Assembly (NCBI RefSeq): GCF_011694515.1
Contig: NZ_CP050192.1
Location: 4,486,521 to 4,550,520 of the forward strand
Source: Mycobacterium sp. DL592
GTDB lineage: Bacteria > Actinomycetota > Actinomycetes > Mycobacteriales > Mycobacteriaceae
Direction of reading: 5' to 3'
DNA: 64,000 bases
Shown here: piece after piece, positions 927 to 9,583 of the stretch
Layout: the number at the start of each line of letters is the position of its first letter
Numbering within the stretch: position 1 is the stretch's first letter
Made by a program: the position numbers and the translations under genes
The notes under the pieces: generated by a model
What the model saw: the letters and a program-made list of their open reading frames with translations, nothing else
The model's database searches: none
Told to the model about the DNA's origin: nothing

Positions 927-2009
927 TCAGCTCGGCTCGTTGAGCTTCACCAGCATCTTGCCGATGTTGGCGCCGGTGAACAGACCGTTGAGCGCATCGA
1001 CGCACCTCTCGAGGCCTTCGAAGACCGTCTCGCGGTGCACCAGCAGGCCCTCGGCCTCCCAGCGGCGAAGGTCGGTGTAGGCCTGCTCGAACCGGTCCCA
1101 CATGTCCAGGGCGTTGAAACCCTGCATCGAGGCGGTCTTGGACAGCAGGTTGACGTAGTTGGCCGGGCCGGGGTGCTCGCCGGTCAGGTAGCTGGAGATC
1201 ACGCCGCACAGCACCACCCGCGCCTTCATGGCGAGCCTGCCGAGCACGGCGTCGAGGATCGGGCCGCCGACGTTGTCGAAGTACACGTTGACGCCCTTGG
1301 GGCAATGCTTCTTGAGGGCGGCGCGGACGTCTTCGTTCTTGTAGTCGATGCACGCGTCGAAGCCGAAGTCCTCGACGACGGCCTTGCACTTGTCCGGGCC
1401 GCCGGCGATCCCGACGACGCGCGCCCCGGCGATCTTGGCGATCTGCCCGGCTACTGACCCGGTGGCTCCGGCCGCCGCCGACACGACGACGGTGTCACCC
1501 TCCTGGGGCCGGCCGATGTCGGTCATGCCGAAGTAGGCGGTGGCACCGGTGGGACCGTAGATGCTCATCACCGCCAGGTGGTCGCTGCCGCGCTGCACCG
1601 GGGTGCTGAAGATGTCGTCGCGGATGATGACGTAGTCCTGAAAACCGGTCAGTGTGGTGATGACATCGCCGACCGTGAACGCCTCGCAGCGGGTTTCGAC
1701 GACCTCGCCGATGCCCGCCGCGCGGATCACCTCCCCGATCTGAACCGGCGGCAGATAACCCGGCTGGTCGTTGAGCCAGGTTCGTGCGGCGGCGTCCAGG
1801 CCGACGTAGGTGGTGCGCAGCAGCGCCTCACCCTCGGCCAGGGTGGGCGCCGGTACCGACACCATCTCGGTGTCCTCGGGTTGGACGAGGCCATCCGGAC
1901 GTCGGCGCAGCAGAATCTGGCGATTGGTCAGCGGGGGCACGGTCAGTGAAACTACCGAAGGCGACGACCGTGCCGGGGCCGGTTTCCACACATCGAGACG
2001 CATGAACAC
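927..2009 (-). CDS. NADP-dependent MDR-family oxidoreductase (leukotriene B4 12-hydroxydehydrogenase / CurA type)
   Basis: A zinc-independent medium-chain reductase, likely reducing an activated C=C bond with NADPH. The N-terminal part has the family's TNRQILLRRRP opening. A glycine-rich nucleotide loop (AAAGATGSVAGQIAK) follows mid-protein, then the CIDYKNED and VYFDNVGG segments. No structural zinc cysteine cluster is visible. The full frame gives 360 residues, about 20 more than usual, so the first 20-odd residues may not be translated. Candidate starts are ATG 2009, ATG 2003 or a GTG near 1940. It converges on xthA with a 9-nt gap. The physiological substrate cannot be read from the sequence. 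Confidence 0.85.
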   Translation of the reverse strand: MFMRLDVWKPAPARSSPSVVSLTVPPLTNRQILLRRRPDGLVQPEDTEMVSVPAPTLAEGEALLRTTYVGLDAAARTWLNDQPGYLPPVQIGEVIRAAGIGEVVETRCEAFTVGDVITTLTGFQDYVIIRDDIFSTPVQRGSDHLAVMSIYGPTGATAYFGMTDIGRPQEGDTVVVSAAAGATGSVAGQIAKIAGARVVGIAGGPDKCKAVVEDFGFDACIDYKNEDVRAALKKHCPKGVNVYFDNVGGPILDAVLGRLAMKARVVLCGVISSYLTGEHPGPANYVNLLSKTASMQGFNALDMWDRFEQAYTDLRRWEAEGLLVHRETVFEGLERCVDALNGLFTGANIGKMLVKLNEPS

Positions 2010-2077
2010 TGTGGCGGGCAGGTAAACATTGGGCTAATCGCGTGGCCATCGCCGCGCCGGAAGGCAAGGATCGTCGG

Positions 2078-2362
2078 GTGGGATCGTTTGTTTCTGTCTA
2101 CGTCGATTGGGCTGCCACCATCGAGCAGGTGAGTTCCGCCGCGGCGGGGCTGCCCAAGCCCGAGGGTGTGCTGCGCACTGAAGTGGTGGCCGCCGGTGAC
2201 ACGTTCGGCTGTCGCGTCGCCGTCGACCTGACGGGCGACTTCGACGAACAGCGGGACGGCCCGCGGATCGCCAGGCGTTACGCGACCCAGCTGTCCGAGG
2301 TGCTCGGCGTTCCGGTGTTCGCGCTGCACGACCTGATCCTCGCCGGCCGTTCGGATTGGTGA
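2078..2362 (+). CDS. Conserved hypothetical protein
   Basis: About 94 residues, acidic and soluble, with no signal peptide or membrane segment and no family I recognise. I chose GTG 2078 because AAGGA lies 7 nt upstream. An earlier in-frame GTG at 2042 would add 12 residues (106 in total). The gene is divergent from the MDR oxidoreductase and followed by another small unknown gene on the same strand. Codon usage is high-GC and coding-like throughout. Confidence 0.55.
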   Translation: MGSFVSVYVDWAATIEQVSSAAAGLPKPEGVLRTEVVAAGDTFGCRVAVDLTGDFDEQRDGPRIARRYATQLSEVLGVPVFALHDLILAGRSDW

Positions 2363-2450
2363 GTCGGGACCGTATCCCGGACGTCACGTTGTGTTCGCCG
2401 CCGCATGGTGTGCTGACGGAAGAGTCGGCCGCACTGCGAAGTTGGTGACG

Positions 2451-2798
2451 ATGAGTTCGGACATCCTGATCCCGAAGAGCACTGCACATCAGACGTTGGC
2501 ATGCATCGAGGCGCTCATCGAGTTCCATCGCCGGCAGACGCCGGCGCCCGCGGCCCGCACCATCGGCGATCTGATCGAATTTCGTGAGGCGCTGGAGCAG
2601 AGCGTGCGAGGCTCTCGGGATCGCACCACCCGCGTGGCGGCGCTGACGTTGGCCAGGATCACCGACCGGCTCACCATGTCGGCGCAGGCCGAAATCGGCC
2701 CCGACCAGATGCAGGCCGCGATGTGGCGTACCGCCGGACGGCTGCATCGCTGGGTTGCCGAAGGCGTCCCGGCCCCGCCGCTCAAGCAGTCCCGATAG
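2451..2798 (+). CDS. Conserved hypothetical protein, predicted helical
   Basis: A 115-residue protein starting MSSDILIPKSTAHQ, apparently all-helical (ACIEALIEFHRR, DLIEFREALEQS) with basic and acidic residues interspersed. It has no signal peptide or transmembrane segment. An in-frame ATG at 2391 would add 20 residues of poorer coding character, so ATG 2451 is preferred, although no clear ribosome binding site precedes it. It converges on the MgtC/DUF4010 gene with a 15-nt gap. Function is not recognised. Confidence 0.55.
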   Translation: MSSDILIPKSTAHQTLACIEALIEFHRRQTPAPAARTIGDLIEFREALEQSVRGSRDRTTRVAALTLARITDRLTMSAQAEIGPDQMQAAMWRTAGRLHRWVAEGVPAPPLKQSR

Positions 2799-2813
2799 GG
2801 GCGGGTGCCCGCG

Positions 2814-4061
2814 TCAGCCCCGCATCACGCTGACGGTCAGGGCGACGCCGAACACGACGGCCGGCAGCGCCATCGCGGCGACGAAACCCAGTCCGAAGCG
2901 CCGGCCTCCCGCGGTGAAGGCCAGCACGGCCTTGACAATCAGGTTCGAACCGAGTGCGGCGGCGATCGAGAGCAGGGCGGTGTCGACAGTGATGTCGCCC
3001 TTGGCGGCGAGGCTCGCTGCGGCCACCGACCCGGCGTGCGCGTCGGCAAGGCCGGCGGCGAACGCCGCCAGAACCGCGCCTTGCGGCCCGAATGCGTCGG
3101 CGCCCCAACGGCCGACGAGCAGGGCGCCGGTGAGCACCGCGGCCAGCACCAGCGCGGGGCGCAGGGCGAAGGGCCGGTCTGGCGGTGCCGGCGGGTTCTC
3201 GGCCGGGTGATCCGGCTGCTGCGGGTGCGTCCCGCCCCGGAACACGAGCACCGCTACTGCCAGGAGAACGACGAACCCGGCGGCCACCGGCAACCACAGC
3301 CGTCTCAGTACGTCGGGGTCGACCAGACCGATCACCACGAGTAGTTGCACGAACGTCGCCAGGCTCGCCAGCAGGGCGCCGGCCAGCGGTGCGCGGATAC
3401 CAGCTGTCCGGCTGAGCCGTCCCATCGAGGCGGTGGTCGCCGAGGCGGAGACAAATCCGCCCGCCAGGCCGGTGATCAGCAGACCGCGTTGCGGGCCGAG
3501 CGCTCGAACTCCGATGTAGCCGAGCCAGCCGATGCCGGTCAGCAGCACCACCAGCAGCCAGATCTTCGCCGGATTGAGCACCCCGTAGGGCCCCATCGAC
3601 CGGTCCGGCAGCAGCGGCAGGACCACGAACGCCACCACGAAGAACTTGATGGCGTCCTCGAGTTCGATCTCGCTGACGATCTCGCGGGCGAACCGGTGAA
3701 TCCGGGATTTCGATACCAGCAGAACCACGACCACCACGGCCAGTGCCACCGCCAGCGCCGGTTTGGTGTAGGCAAGCGCGCCAAGCAGATACACGACGAG
3801 CGCGGCGATCTCGGTGGTGGTCCCGGGATCGTCGGAGCTGGTGCGGAAGTACGCCAGCGCCAGCAGCGCCCCGACACCGAGCAACCCGACCAGCACGACG
3901 CGGATGTCGAAACTCGCCGCGACGGCGCCGGCGAGTGCCAGCAGCGCGAACGACCGCGAGCCGGCCGGCAGCTTGCGGCTGTGGCTGCGTTCGCGCTCGA
4001 AGCCGAGCAGCAGCCCGATCGCCAGAGCGACCAGGAACGGCTGGATCTGCTGCCAGGTCAC
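2814..4061 (-). CDS. MgtC/SapB N-domain plus DUF4010 membrane protein
   Basis: An integral membrane protein of about 415 residues. The first ~150 residues resemble the MgtC/SapB domain: a hydrophobic helix, then GLLLGFERERS, then SRSFALLALAG. The rest is a run of hydrophobic helices of the DUF4010 type, including TGLAGGFVSASATTASMGR. MgtC proteins are tied to low-Mg survival and to regulation of membrane ATPases. The role of the DUF4010 fusion is not established. I chose GTG 4061 because GGAGGAG lies just upstream; an ATG at 4136 would add 25 hydrophilic residues in front of the first helix. Confidence 0.8.
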   Translation of the reverse strand: MTWQQIQPFLVALAIGLLLGFERERSHSRKLPAGSRSFALLALAGAVAASFDIRVVLVGLLGVGALLALAYFRTSSDDPGTTTEIAALVVYLLGALAYTKPALAVALAVVVVVLLVSKSRIHRFAREIVSEIELEDAIKFFVVAFVVLPLLPDRSMGPYGVLNPAKIWLLVVLLTGIGWLGYIGVRALGPQRGLLITGLAGGFVSASATTASMGRLSRTAGIRAPLAGALLASLATFVQLLVVIGLVDPDVLRRLWLPVAAGFVVLLAVAVLVFRGGTHPQQPDHPAENPPAPPDRPFALRPALVLAAVLTGALLVGRWGADAFGPQGAVLAAFAAGLADAHAGSVAAASLAAKGDITVDTALLSIAAALGSNLIVKAVLAFTAGGRRFGLGFVAAMALPAVVFGVALTVSVMRG

Positions 4062-4166: not shown

Positions 4167-5894
4167 CTAGTCGGCGACGAAGTCCTCGGCGTAGCGGCCG
4201 GGGTTGAACAGCGAGGCGATCGCGCCGATCACCATCATCAGTGCGGCGGCGCCGAACACGACGACCAATCCGGCGTGGAACGGCTCGATGATGAGGTTCG
4301 GGAAGAACGTCTTTCCGGTCAGCACTTCGGTATTGACACCGGGCTGGTTGAGTGCGCCGTGTGGCGCAAGCAGTTCGGCGATCGGGTTGTAGCCGAGGAA
4401 TGCCGCGAACAGGCTGCCGACCGGCGGCAGGTTGGCCACGTCCTGGGCCACCGCGGCCGACACGCCTTGGGCCTGCAGTCCGCGGCTCATCGCATCGGGC
4501 AGGGTGCCCGCAAGTCCCACGATCATCAGGGAGAAGAAGATGCCGATCGACAGCGACGAGCCGGCGTTGAAGAACGTCGCTCGCACGCCGGAGGCGGCCC
4601 CGCGTTGGGCGGCCGGAACACTGGACATGATCGCTGCGGTGTTGGGCGCGGTGAAGATGCCGCCGCCGAGACCGTTGAGGAACACCAGCACGGCGAACAC
4701 CCAGTAGTTGAAGTTCACCGGGATCATCAGCAGCGCCACGAACGTCACCGCCATCAGTACCATGCCGCCGACGGTGAAGGGCCGGGATCCGAATCGGTCG
4801 GCCAGCGACCCCGCGATCGGTGCGGCGGCGAGGAACCCGAATGTGGCGGGCAGTAGATAGATGCCCGCCCACAGCGGGGTGGATTCAAAGCTGTAGCCGT
4901 GCAAGGGAAGCCAGATGCCCTGCAGCCAGATGATGAGCATGAATTGCAGGCCGCCGCGGCCCACCGAGGACATCAACCCGGCGAGGTTTCCCATGCCGAA
5001 CGCCGCGGACCGGAACAACCGGATGTCGACCATCGGCTCCGCGACGCGCAGTTCGATGAGACAGAACACCACCAGCAGCAGCAGTCCGCCGATGATCGAG
5101 CCGAGCACCAGTGGGTTGGTCCAGCCGGTCGTCGAGTCGCCGTAGGGCTGGATTCCGTAGGTGATTCCGATGAGCAGGACGGTCAGCCCGACGCCGAAGG
5201 TGACGGTGCCTGCCCAGTCCATCTTCCCGGGATTGCGCACCCCGAGTTCCTTCAGGGACCGCATGCTCCAGATGGTGCCGATGATGCCGATGGGCACGCC
5301 GACCCAGAACACCGCCTGCCAGTGGATCTCGGAGAGCACGCCGCCGATCAACAACCCGAGGAACGAACCCGCAACGGCGGCAACCATGTTGACGCCCAAT
5401 GCCATTCCGCGCTGATTGGCGGGGAACGCGTCGGTGAGGATGGCCGACGACGAGGACATCAGCATCGCCCCGCCGATCCCCTGGATCACTCGCCACCCGA
5501 TCAGCCAGATCGCCCCAGCATCGAGATGGAACGGATCGAACGACAGCGCGATGGCGGCCAGGGTAAACACCACGAAGCCGATGTTGTACATCTTGACCCG
5601 GCCGAACATGTCACCCAGTCGGCCGAACGGCACCACCAGGACCGCGGTCACCACCAGGTAGCCCATCAGCATCCACAGCAGGTAGCTGACGTTGCCGGGG
5701 GCCAGCGGGTTCAGCCCGATGCCGCGGAAGATCGCGGGCAGGGAGATCAGGACGATCGAGGCGTTGACGGCAGCCAGCAGGATGCCCAGCGTGGTGTTGG
5801 ACAGGACGACCCACTTGTAGTGGGGATGGTCGTGGTCCATCCGCCGCCGGCGGCGGTCGGTTTCGATATCGGCGGCGTCGATCTCGGTGGTCAC
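4167..5894 (-). CDS. MFS drug/metabolite exporter, DHA2 (14-TM, EmrB/QacA) family
   Basis: A 575-residue proton-coupled exporter of the inner membrane. Visible features are MFS motif A (GRLGDMFGRVKMY), the DHA2 'RVIQGIGGAML' motif in TM4 and an antiporter motif C-like segment (AGSFLGLLIGGVLSE) in TM5, with enough hydrophobic segments for 14 helices. The N-terminus is long and charged (TDRRRRRMDHDHPHYK) before TM1. The start is GTG 5894; ATG 5918 is possible. An AT-rich region with a TAAC/GTTA palindrome at 5954-5967 lies about 60 bp upstream. No cognate regulator is adjacent and the substrate is unknown. Confidence 0.88.
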   Translation of the reverse strand: MTTEIDAADIETDRRRRRMDHDHPHYKWVVLSNTTLGILLAAVNASIVLISLPAIFRGIGLNPLAPGNVSYLLWMLMGYLVVTAVLVVPFGRLGDMFGRVKMYNIGFVVFTLAAIALSFDPFHLDAGAIWLIGWRVIQGIGGAMLMSSSSAILTDAFPANQRGMALGVNMVAAVAGSFLGLLIGGVLSEIHWQAVFWVGVPIGIIGTIWSMRSLKELGVRNPGKMDWAGTVTFGVGLTVLLIGITYGIQPYGDSTTGWTNPLVLGSIIGGLLLLVVFCLIELRVAEPMVDIRLFRSAAFGMGNLAGLMSSVGRGGLQFMLIIWLQGIWLPLHGYSFESTPLWAGIYLLPATFGFLAAAPIAGSLADRFGSRPFTVGGMVLMAVTFVALLMIPVNFNYWVFAVLVFLNGLGGGIFTAPNTAAIMSSVPAAQRGAASGVRATFFNAGSSLSIGIFFSLMIVGLAGTLPDAMSRGLQAQGVSAAVAQDVANLPPVGSLFAAFLGYNPIAELLAPHGALNQPGVNTEVLTGKTFFPNLIIEPFHAGLVVVFGAAALMMVIGAIASLFNPGRYAEDFVAD

Positions 5895-5953
5895 GGGCCT
5901 ATCTCGTTTCGTGTGCAATCAATCAGTAGCAGCATCAGGCGCCCACGGCGCAA

Positions 5954-5967
5954 TAACGCATATGTTA
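5954..5967. promoter_or_regulatory. Palindromic operator candidate upstream of the MFS exporter
   Basis: TAACGCATATGTTA forms an inverted repeat with TAAC/GTTA ends. It sits in an unusually AT-rich island 60 bp upstream of the exporter start. Size and placement fit a MarR/TetR-type repressor site; no regulator gene is next to it. Confidence 0.35.
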
Positions 5968-5998
5968 GCTATACAAATCTTTTCAGGCCAATCCGCGT

Positions 5999-6055
5999 CG
6001 AATTTCACCTTTCGCCGCGAAAGACCGAGTAGACCCGCGCAAAACGTGAAACTCG
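5999..6055. repeat. 57-bp hairpin repeat, copy A (flanks the DUF559 gene)
   Basis: The element runs from CGAATTTCACCTTTCGC to AAAACGTGAAACTCG. Its ends are imperfect inverted repeats (CGA-R-TTTCAC-S-TTT-Y-GC), so single strands could fold into a hairpin. Copy B at 6962-7018 is the same length and orientation, with 45 of 57 bases identical by my alignment. Copy A begins 18 nt beyond the stop codon of the DUF559 gene. Confidence 0.8.
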
Positions 6056-6073
6056 ATCCGGGCCCGCCCTTGC

Positions 6074-6928
6074 TTAGGGCTTCCAGCCGCGCGACAGGAG
6101 ATTTCGCCGGGTGCGTTCGACGATCTCGTCATCGCTATGTTCCTTGATGACGTGATCGACCGCCCAACCAAGACTTTCCATGACCGGGCGTAGTCGCACG
6201 TCCTTCACGTAGGAGCGGCGGTCCGTGCGGTGCACATCGCCGTCGTACTCCGAGCCGACCCGAAAACGCTCCCACCCCAGGTCGAGAATCCGCACCGCCC
6301 GCCTGCCGTCGAAAACCGGTACCTGGGTTTCGGGACGCGGGAGACCCGCATCGACGTACAACAGCCGCAGCCTTGTCTCCTGCGGCGAGGCCGCTCCGCC
6401 GTCCACGAGGGGCAGCACCTCGGCCAGCCGTTTCAGACCGCGCACTCCGGGATAACGCTTGGCCAGGAGCACCACATCCTCGGATGAGAACACTTGATTG
6501 CGCATCAGCGCGTCCAACCGCGCGATCGATTCACCGCGCCCCAGGTGCCTGCCGAGATCGAATGCCGCTCGGGCCCGCACGACAACGGGGATACCCGAAA
6601 CTTTGGTGACCTCATCTGGTGCGATCGACTCCTGCCGGACCACCAGGCCTGGTTGGGGCCGCGCGTGACGCGGTGATATCAGTTCGACGGGGGTGTGCGC
6701 GTCGACCCAGTTCGCGCCGTACAGTCCGGACGCCACCACGCCGGTGACCACGGCCTGACAGCCAGTCGCCAACCACGCCGCCTTCGCCCGATCCCACAGC
6801 GTGACGGCCGAGCCCTTGGGCATGTACACACCCCGGAAAAGCGGCTGGTACCAGCGGGCCAGCTCACTCCTGGTGAGCCGACCATCCGTCAGCGCCTCAC
6901 GTCCGATGAACACCTCCCGCTCGGCCAT
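6074..6928 (-). CDS. AbiEi-like / DUF559 (Vsr-like nuclease) domain protein
   Basis: A 284-residue protein. The N-terminal ~100 residues resemble the AbiEi-type regulatory region of type IV toxin-antitoxin proteins (RLTRSELARWYQPLFRGVY). The C-terminal third looks like the DUF559/Vsr-like PD-(D/E)XK fold: Glu184 in SPQETRLRLLY, Asp216 in ILDLGW, Glu227-Tyr-Asp-Gly in GSEYDGDVH, and Lys242. A nuclease activity is therefore plausible but unproven. No AbiEii-type toxin gene is adjacent, so an ordinary type IV toxin-antitoxin pair is not supported. The gene stands alone between an exporter and the thiC leader, and is closely bracketed by two 57-bp hairpin repeats, which suggests a mobile or repeat-associated cassette. 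Confidence 0.8.
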   Translation of the reverse strand: MAEREVFIGREALTDGRLTRSELARWYQPLFRGVYMPKGSAVTLWDRAKAAWLATGCQAVVTGVVASGLYGANWVDAHTPVELISPRHARPQPGLVVRQESIAPDEVTKVSGIPVVVRARAAFDLGRHLGRGESIARLDALMRNQVFSSEDVVLLAKRYPGVRGLKRLAEVLPLVDGGAASPQETRLRLLYVDAGLPRPETQVPVFDGRRAVRILDLGWERFRVGSEYDGDVHRTDRRSYVKDVRLRPVMESLGWAVDHVIKEHSDDEIVERTRRNLLSRGWKP

Positions 6929-6961
6929 GGCGGGAGCCTGTCACCGGGCACCGACACCGAT

Positions 6962-7018
6962 CGACTTTCACCTTCTGCAGCGAAAGGTCGAGTGGGCCGC
7001 TGCGAAACGTGAAACTCG
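6962..7018. repeat. 57-bp hairpin repeat, copy B
   Basis: It runs from CGACTTTCACCTTCTGCAGCG to CGCTGCGAAACGTGAAACTC-G. The two 21-nt arms pair at 17 positions. It is a direct repeat of copy A (12 differences in 57). It lies 33 nt upstream of the DUF559 start and about 55 nt before the thiC riboswitch. Confidence 0.8.
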
Positions 7019-7072
7019 TTGCTCGGCCGCCCGCCGCGGCCTGGGCTACTGTGGGCGGCGGAATACAACCAC

Positions 7073-9583
<2,511 letters not shown>

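What the first reader, a model, noticed from the sequence alone, without database searches (positions are those of the whole stretch)
5999..7018. Nuclease gene framed by two 57-bp hairpin repeats: possible repeat-associated mobile cassette
A lone DUF559/AbiEi-like gene (PD-(D/E)XK residues seen at Glu184, Asp216, Glu227) is bracketed by two equal-length direct repeats. They lie 18 nt past its stop and 33 nt before its start, and are 45/57 identical. Each repeat is itself a near-palindrome with arms CGA-N-TTTCAC-S-TT. This resembles the REP/RAYT arrangement, where a nuclease acts on dispersed hairpins, but with a Vsr-like domain instead of a Y1 transposase. The idea that the nuclease recognises or mobilises these hairpins is inference.
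Basis: partly seen in the sequence, partly recalled or inferred. Interest (0 to 1): 0.75.

Follow-up and report, generated by a model that had tools for sequence, protein, structure and literature searches.

The report
Nuclease genes with matching DNA hairpins
Mycobacteria carry a family of DNA-cutting-enzyme genes, mostly framed by their own matching 57-letter hairpins that are also scattered alone around the genome, which looks like an undescribed kind of small mobile DNA system.

Summary
The window gene (6074-6928, minus strand) encodes an AbiEi-like N-terminal module joined to a Vsr/I-Bth0305I-like nuclease domain. It lies between two 57-nt hairpins (5999-6055, 6962-7018; 45/57 identical). 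All 98 genus genomes searched have 1-16 matches to the protein. Of 80 named mycobacterial loci, 65 have such a hairpin on at least one side of the gene, against 1 of 775 control windows. Length is fixed at 57 nt. One loop class keeps the motif ACTCGnnCTT, while stems differ between gene subfamilies and covary (18 of 20 pairs). The stem follows the protein even when the gene sits elsewhere (0.74 against 0.45 identity). Hairpins with the window stem, solos included, occur in 6 of 6 genomes with the window gene and 1 of 92 without it. Hairpins and hairpin-gene-hairpin units are present or absent at orthologous sites, and the gene has inverted repeatedly between its hairpins. It is organised like REP/RAYT, but with an unrelated nuclease. 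Mobilisation by the nuclease is inferred, not shown. Ten literature searches found no described equivalent.

The parts
6074..6928 (-). 284-aa AbiEi-like + Vsr/EDxHD-like nuclease gene (MTES_1575/DUF559 group)
6962..7018 (-). 57-nt hairpin, upstream copy (33 nt before the start codon)
   Evidence: CM R1 64.5 bits, E 3.5e-19 (this copy is in the model's own alignment A1)
5999..6055 (-). 57-nt hairpin, downstream copy (18 nt after the stop codon)
   Evidence: CM R1 60.8 bits, E 6.3e-18 (this copy is in the model's own alignment A1)
5999..7018 (.). whole hairpin-gene-hairpin unit, about 1.02 kb, absent as a unit from empty sites in related genomes
   Evidence: MFS-thiC intergenic regions without gene or hairpin in L058, L060, L069, L070, L071, L072 (best 57-nt score 17-19 in each)
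7065..7180 (+). TPP riboswitch of the neighbouring thiC-like gene (host context, not part of the unit)
   Evidence: Rfam RF00059, 63.4 bits
7171..8754 (+). right neighbour, thiC-like gene (context)
   Evidence: ORF; name from own knowledge plus the TPP riboswitch
4167..5918 (-). left neighbour, MFS-type transporter gene (context)
   Evidence: ORF; conserved neighbour in L029-L033; name from own knowledge

Best explanation
The window holds one unit of a family of small hairpin-ended elements in which an AbiEi-like module fused to a Vsr/EDxHD-type nuclease is the dedicated enzyme for its own 57-nt hairpin. SHOWN by sequence comparison: gene subfamilies have their own stem sequences, loop motifs are shared across subfamilies, the hairpins also exist as solo copies, the stem follows the protein to other sites, units and solos are present or absent at orthologous sites, and the gene has flipped between its hairpins more than once. 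INFERRED: the nuclease binds the folded motif-bearing strand of its cognate hairpin, probably when replication or transcription exposes single strands, and cuts at or near its CGA/TCG base. Cutting one hairpin yields solo copies (REP-like); two hairpins acting together move the gene (cassette) or, by repair through the paired inner arms, invert it. Insertion makes no detectable target duplication. It works like a REPtron but uses an unrelated enzyme.
For: Hairpins at 65 of 80 gene loci against 1 of 775 control windows. Fixed 57-nt length and 18 of 20 pairs with changes on both sides (shuffled mean 13.9, 1 of 500 shuffles as high; covariation score 0 of 500). Window-stem hairpins in 6 of 6 genomes with the gene against 1 of 92 without. 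Stem identity 0.74 for proteins of 68% identity or more at different sites (34 pairs) against 0.45 for pairs under 60% (1294 pairs); stem and protein identity correlate over 65 loci (Spearman 0.252, 0 of 500 permutations as high). Similar proteins at unlike sites: L134/L136 85%, L135/L138 84%, L135/L140 82%. Empty site without gene or hairpins. Solo at the L104 site filled in G000, G053, G093, G043, empty in G009, G024, G018; L105 solo absent in G018. Gene inverted in G004 and G053, which are not sisters; also L163, L192 and L196 relative to homologs at the same site. G.T mismatches exceed A.C on the motif strand (149 to 69; ratio 2.16, maximum of 1000 shuffles 1.85). Purifying selection and conserved catalytic residues. 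Fold AbiEi + I-Bth0305I/Vsr. A review states that I-Bth0305I dimerises on a target of nearly 60 bp (PMC3943268, passages).
Against: No transposition or cleavage was observed. No target duplication, so no positive insertion signature. Solos at two sites are shared by several species, so movement is slow or old. The flips could be ordinary homologous recombination between inverted arms. Ortholog L130 has no upstream hairpin above threshold. L131/L134 have 80% similar proteins but 0.38 stem identity. The six genomes with the window gene are related, so 6/6 against 1/92 is not 98 independent points. For protein pairs under 60% identity the stem-protein correlation is weak (Spearman 0.093, 10 of 500 permutations as high).
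Confidence: 0.62

Rival explanations
1. The hairpins are regulatory sites: the AbiEi-like module binds (or the nuclease cleaves the mRNA at) hairpins next to its own gene for autoregulation, and the solo copies are other regulated genes or passively copied sites.
For: The upstream hairpin is found more often than the downstream one (60 against 43 of 80). AbiEi profiles match the N-terminal module; AbiEi antitoxins autoregulate (own knowledge). G.T tolerance fits RNA as well as ssDNA.
Against: Does not explain a downstream copy at 43 of 80 loci, inverted pairs, absence of gene and hairpins together at empty sites, solos absent at orthologous sites, or own-genome solos with stems that I could not match to any own-genome gene of the family (by eye).
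Confidence: 0.17
2. The hairpins are MITE- or REP-like repeats spread by some other enzyme; the nuclease gene is a passenger caught between two copies.
For: 26 of 30 own-genome places are solo. REP-like elements that seem to lack a dedicated transposase (CGTC REPs) are described (PMC3733652, passages).
Against: Stem sequence tracks the nuclease sequence across sites and genomes. Most loci of this one nuclease family are so framed (65 of 80). A relative in another family of the order has a similar layout (L296).
Confidence: 0.1
3. A homing-endonuclease-like selfish gene: the nuclease cuts a target that the inserted unit destroys, and spreads by repair copying; the hairpins are the edges or recognition half-sites.
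Against: The six empty sites carry no 57-nt hairpin to be recognised. Solo hairpins at many sites are not expected from homing.
Confidence: 0.08

Closest known systems
REP/RAYT (TnpA-REP) systems, REPtrons
   Same: A single-enzyme gene framed by cognate imperfect hairpins that are also dispersed in the genome; specific stems plus a short conserved motif; strand asymmetry (PMC8266576 and PMC3733652, passages).
   Different: The enzyme is an AbiEi-like + Vsr/EDxHD nuclease, not a Y1 HUH transposase. The element is 57 nt long with the conserved motif in a 17-nt loop; no GTAG tag at its end.
EDxHD homing endonuclease I-Bth0305I / Vsr endonuclease
   Different: N-terminal AbiEi-like module; not in an intron or intein here; framed by hairpins; matches in 98 of 98 genus genomes, 1-16 each.
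AbiEi antitoxin / Rv2827c
   Different: Carries its own nuclease domain; the window neighbours are an MFS and a thiC-like gene, not an AbiEii-type gene.
IS200/IS605 and MITEs
   Same: Hairpin ends, no target duplication seen, non-autonomous copies.
   Different: No HUH domain found by Pfam. The end is an entire 57-nt hairpin of fixed length. Comparison with these families rests on own knowledge.

Membership tests
REP/RAYT (REPtron) | Y1 (HUH) tyrosine transposase encoded between the repeats | tested here: not met
   Pfam scan of the window protein and 10 relatives gives only MTES_1575, DUF559, AbiEi and PvuRts1I-like matches; fold is AbiEi + Vsr-like
REP/RAYT (REPtron) | gene flanked by cognate hairpins that are also dispersed in the genome | tested here: met
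REP/RAYT (REPtron) | GTAG (or CGTC) tag at one end of the repeat | tested here: not met
   ends are CGA...TCG; the conserved motif is in the loop
REP/RAYT (REPtron) | strand-specific recognition and cleavage of the single-stranded hairpin | not testable with these tools
   G.T over A.C excess on the motif strand is only indirect
EDxHD homing endonuclease | EDxHD/Vsr-type catalytic domain | tested here: met
   assignment of E184, D216, H233, D243 to the motif is my inference
EDxHD homing endonuclease | inserts into and disrupts its own recognition site in the empty allele | tested here: inconclusive
   empty MFS-thiC sites lack the hairpin; what the enzyme would recognise there is unknown
Type IV AbiE toxin-antitoxin | adjacent AbiEii nucleotidyltransferase toxin gene | tested here: not met
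   neighbours in the window and in orthologs L029-L033 are the MFS and thiC-like genes
DDE-type IS or MITE | target-site duplication | tested here: not met
   43 solos from 41 loci: 3 matches of 3 nt against 2.2 expected, 1 of 4 nt against 1.3, none of 5-8 nt; 2-nt matches 16 against 8.7, which may reflect extension of the stem
DUF559 (PF04480) / MTES_1575 (PF18741) | score above the curated cut-off | tested here: not met
   window protein: only PF18741 at 14.2 bits, cut-off 38.2; its paralogs L011 and L014 pass PF04480

The most novel reading that the evidence does not exclude
A previously undescribed class of bacterial mobile element, convergent with REP/RAYT: a Vsr/EDxHD nuclease fused to an AbiEi-like module recognises a folded 57-nt single-strand hairpin through a shared loop motif plus a subfamily-specific stem. 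It disperses the hairpin alone or the hairpin-gene-hairpin cassette and flips the gene between its hairpins, in several parallel, mutually specific sets per genome across mycobacteria and in at least one other family of the order.
Probability: 0.55. Interest if true: 0.92.

Novelty: categorically new. Interest (0 to 1): 0.86.

Why it matters
REP/RAYT is the known example of an enzyme that lives with, and is thought to spread, its own dispersed hairpins. Here an unrelated nuclease appears to have reached the same arrangement, with several nuclease-hairpin pairs per genome. If the enzyme acts on the hairpins it gives a ready-made set of sequence-specific hairpin nucleases with natural specificity variants, explains a class of dispersed hairpins in mycobacteria, and gives a hypothesis for the many genes of this family that sources name only 'hypothetical protein'.

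Tried and rejected
Deletion-scar (solo-LTR-like) origin of solos: unlikely for this stem family. Each of the six genomes with the window gene shows one ortholog (83-100%), at the MFS-thiC site, and its next-best listed match is about 44-52% identical; yet together they hold about 20 solos elsewhere (counted by eye). Duplex-palindrome (dimer operator) reading: the loop is conserved but asymmetric, and G.T mismatches outnumber A.C beyond column make-up; related sequences make this suggestive only. Target duplication: none. Phage or virus carriage: no relative in phages or, by the pattern scan, in viral contigs. Plasmids: 6 records, none mycobacterial, 29-35% identity. Known RNA family: only the TPP riboswitch in 5850-7250. 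Defence: PADLOC gives AbiEi profiles and a few weak others.

Loss or gain at the empty site is unresolved: G009 falls inside the clade of gene carriers (the label needs 2 changes), but one clade of carriers is not rejected (p-AU 0.084). A test of whether inner arms of hairpin pairs resemble each other more than outer arms, as recurrent inversion would predict, gave no general support: in 29 direct pairs outer exceeded inner in 16 and the reverse in 7; in 10 inverted pairs 4 and 4.

Literature: ten searches listed no paper that links this nuclease family to hairpin repeats, by title and abstract; most listed papers were not opened. An older survey lists stem-loop families in M. tuberculosis without known identity, such as Myt-1, 72 nt, 75 copies (PMC2267715, passages); whether any is this family was not testable here. 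Most subscription journals are not in the library.

Full report
OBSERVATION. The ORF 6074-6928 (-) and the two repeats are as described. The exact repeat units are 57 nt, 5999-6055 and 6962-7018, both with the loop motif on the minus strand; 45 of 57 positions agree (counted by eye on the printed sequences). They are the only model matches in the 64-kb window with E below 0.5.

RELATIVES AND THEIR OWN HAIRPINS. The own genome has the window gene plus seven further places with relatives (and a marginal eighth, L021, E 0.012), two of them fragmentary. Four of these seven (L023, L024, L026, L028) have flanking direct repeats of 57-66 nt, each with a different sequence; L022, L025 and L027 have a strong hairpin directly beside the gene. 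The repeats at L026 fold poorly. In 34 loci (5 own, 29 from other genus genomes) the upstream and downstream flanks resemble each other above the 95th percentile of 1122 mismatched pairs in 18. Of the 15 loci without such a hairpin, 9 still have matching flanks with an alignment score above 50, several with a second loop motif, GACACGCCG. L130, L178, L184 and L206 show little. A few of the 80 are the same records as G-handle loci.

ANATOMY OF THE HAIRPIN. 45 copies align over 57 columns without a gap. The ends are CGA...TCG, the stem has 20 pairs and the loop 17 nt with ACTCGnnCTT. 88.1% of cells pair (shuffled 66.1%), 18 of 20 pairs show changes on both sides (shuffled 13.9), and the covariation score is 0.589 against 0.201 shuffled and at most 0.160 when the pairing is slid. 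The copies were chosen for being hairpin-like, so percent paired is biased upward; the compensatory changes are the stronger point. In 109 non-redundant copies G.T exceeds A.C, 149 to 69 (ratio 2.16; shuffled mean 1.56, maximum 1.85 of 1000), as expected if the motif strand folds alone; shared ancestry makes these counts non-independent.

COGNATE RELATION. A pattern for the window stem (TTTCAC arms, up to 2 mismatches) was run in 98 genus genomes. Counted by eye from the printed matches, real hairpins occur in G000 (6), G004 (6), G024 (3), G043 (4), G053 (7) and G093 (6), which are exactly the six genomes with an 83-100% ortholog. Thirteen of the other 92 genomes have pattern matches, but only one match, in G018, scores as a hairpin (27.0; the best match with a locus in each of the other twelve scores 20 or less, and the second matches in G018, G005, G031 and G012 lack the loop motif). 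That copy lies at a site shared with G000. The six are related species, so this is one clade-level contrast; G009 falls in the same clade but lacks the gene, the flanking hairpins and any pattern match. Independently, over 65 loci with hairpins, protein pairs of 68% identity or more at different sites have mean stem identity 0.74 (34 pairs), against 0.45 for pairs under 60% at different sites (1294 pairs) and 0.45-0.47 for pairs under 60% that share flanks (319 pairs). So the stem follows the protein, not the place. Exception: L131/L134.

MOBILITY. At the window locus, of 16 genomes examined, five have the unit, six have an MFS-thiC intergenic region without gene or hairpin (L058, L060, L069-L072), and in five the MFS gene was not found beside thiC. 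L058 against L033 shows the unit arriving as a whole; no clear duplication. Similar genes with similar hairpins occur at unlike sites (L134/L136, L135/L138, L135/L140). A solo (L104) is present in G000, G053, G093, G043 and cleanly absent in G009, G024, G018; in G004 about 2.1 kb of other sequence lies there. A second (L109) is recognisable in G000, G018, G053, G004, G093, G024 and absent in G043; G009 could not be judged. A third (L105) is absent in G018. 43 solos show no duplication of 3 nt or more beyond chance. Own genome: 30 distinct places at E 1e-3 or better, 4 at nuclease genes, 26 solo; a lower bound, since 150 of 1310 candidates were scored.

INVERSION. In G004 and G053 the gene points the other way between hairpins of unchanged orientation. 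They are not sisters: (G093,G004) and (G024,G053), each 100/99, so at least two flips. Inverted genes at shared sites also occur for L163, L192 and L196 relative to their homologs. Whether the nuclease or ordinary recombination between arms does this is open; a test for arm homogenisation gave no general support.

BREADTH. The hairpin model finds matches in 25 of 25 genus genomes and in 4 of 16 others of the order, 1-4 matches each. In three genomes of one other family, relatives of the nuclease exist. Of the 7 loci there, one (L296) is flanked by two 69-71-nt palindromic direct repeats with a GACACGCC loop, L297 has one such hairpin and L298 has a pair of palindromes; the other four show no matching pair.

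MECHANISM AND STATUS. I commit to a dedicated nuclease-hairpin system that disperses hairpins and cassettes (0.62). Recognition, cutting, the strand and the insertion chemistry are inferred. It works like a REPtron but fails its defining enzyme test, so I do not file it there; it shares a catalytic fold with EDxHD homing endonucleases but not, as far as tested, their lifestyle.

Noticed in passing
L223 (G004:C1:4413300-4414000) and L220 (G004:C1:4169000-4169650): Clusters of three and two hairpins, of two different stem families in L223, lie close together, like REP clusters (BIMEs).
   Followed up: no
L120, L121, L124-L127 (own genome): Solo hairpins with CGAGATCGACGAAATGGCGC-type stems have no matching own-genome nuclease that I recognised, but similar stems frame genes in other species (L164, L172, L175, L177, L199): possible orphans left after gene loss.
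   Followed up: partly
L114, L116, L117 (own genome): A third solo stem family (TGAGTnAG arms), with pairing that runs beyond the 57 nt in L114 and L116 and no framed gene seen.
   Followed up: no
G004:C1:2104831-2106907: About 2.1 kb of extra sequence sits at the site orthologous to the L104 solo hairpin in G004.
   Followed up: no
L191, L197 (clear); L188, L193 (by eye): Outer arms of the two end hairpins pair with each other and inner arms with each other better than within each hairpin.
   Followed up: partly
L026 and L028 (own genome): Two nuclease paralogs are broken into fragments while their flanking repeats remain.
   Followed up: partly
L027 (G000:C1:4158500-4164000), gene 1767-3170: A distant 467-aa relative (AbiEi_4 and MTES_1575 weak) with a strong hairpin directly after its stop codon.
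   Followed up: no
window 7065-7180: TPP riboswitch between the upstream hairpin and the thiC-like gene; the unit ends 46 nt before it.
   Followed up: yes
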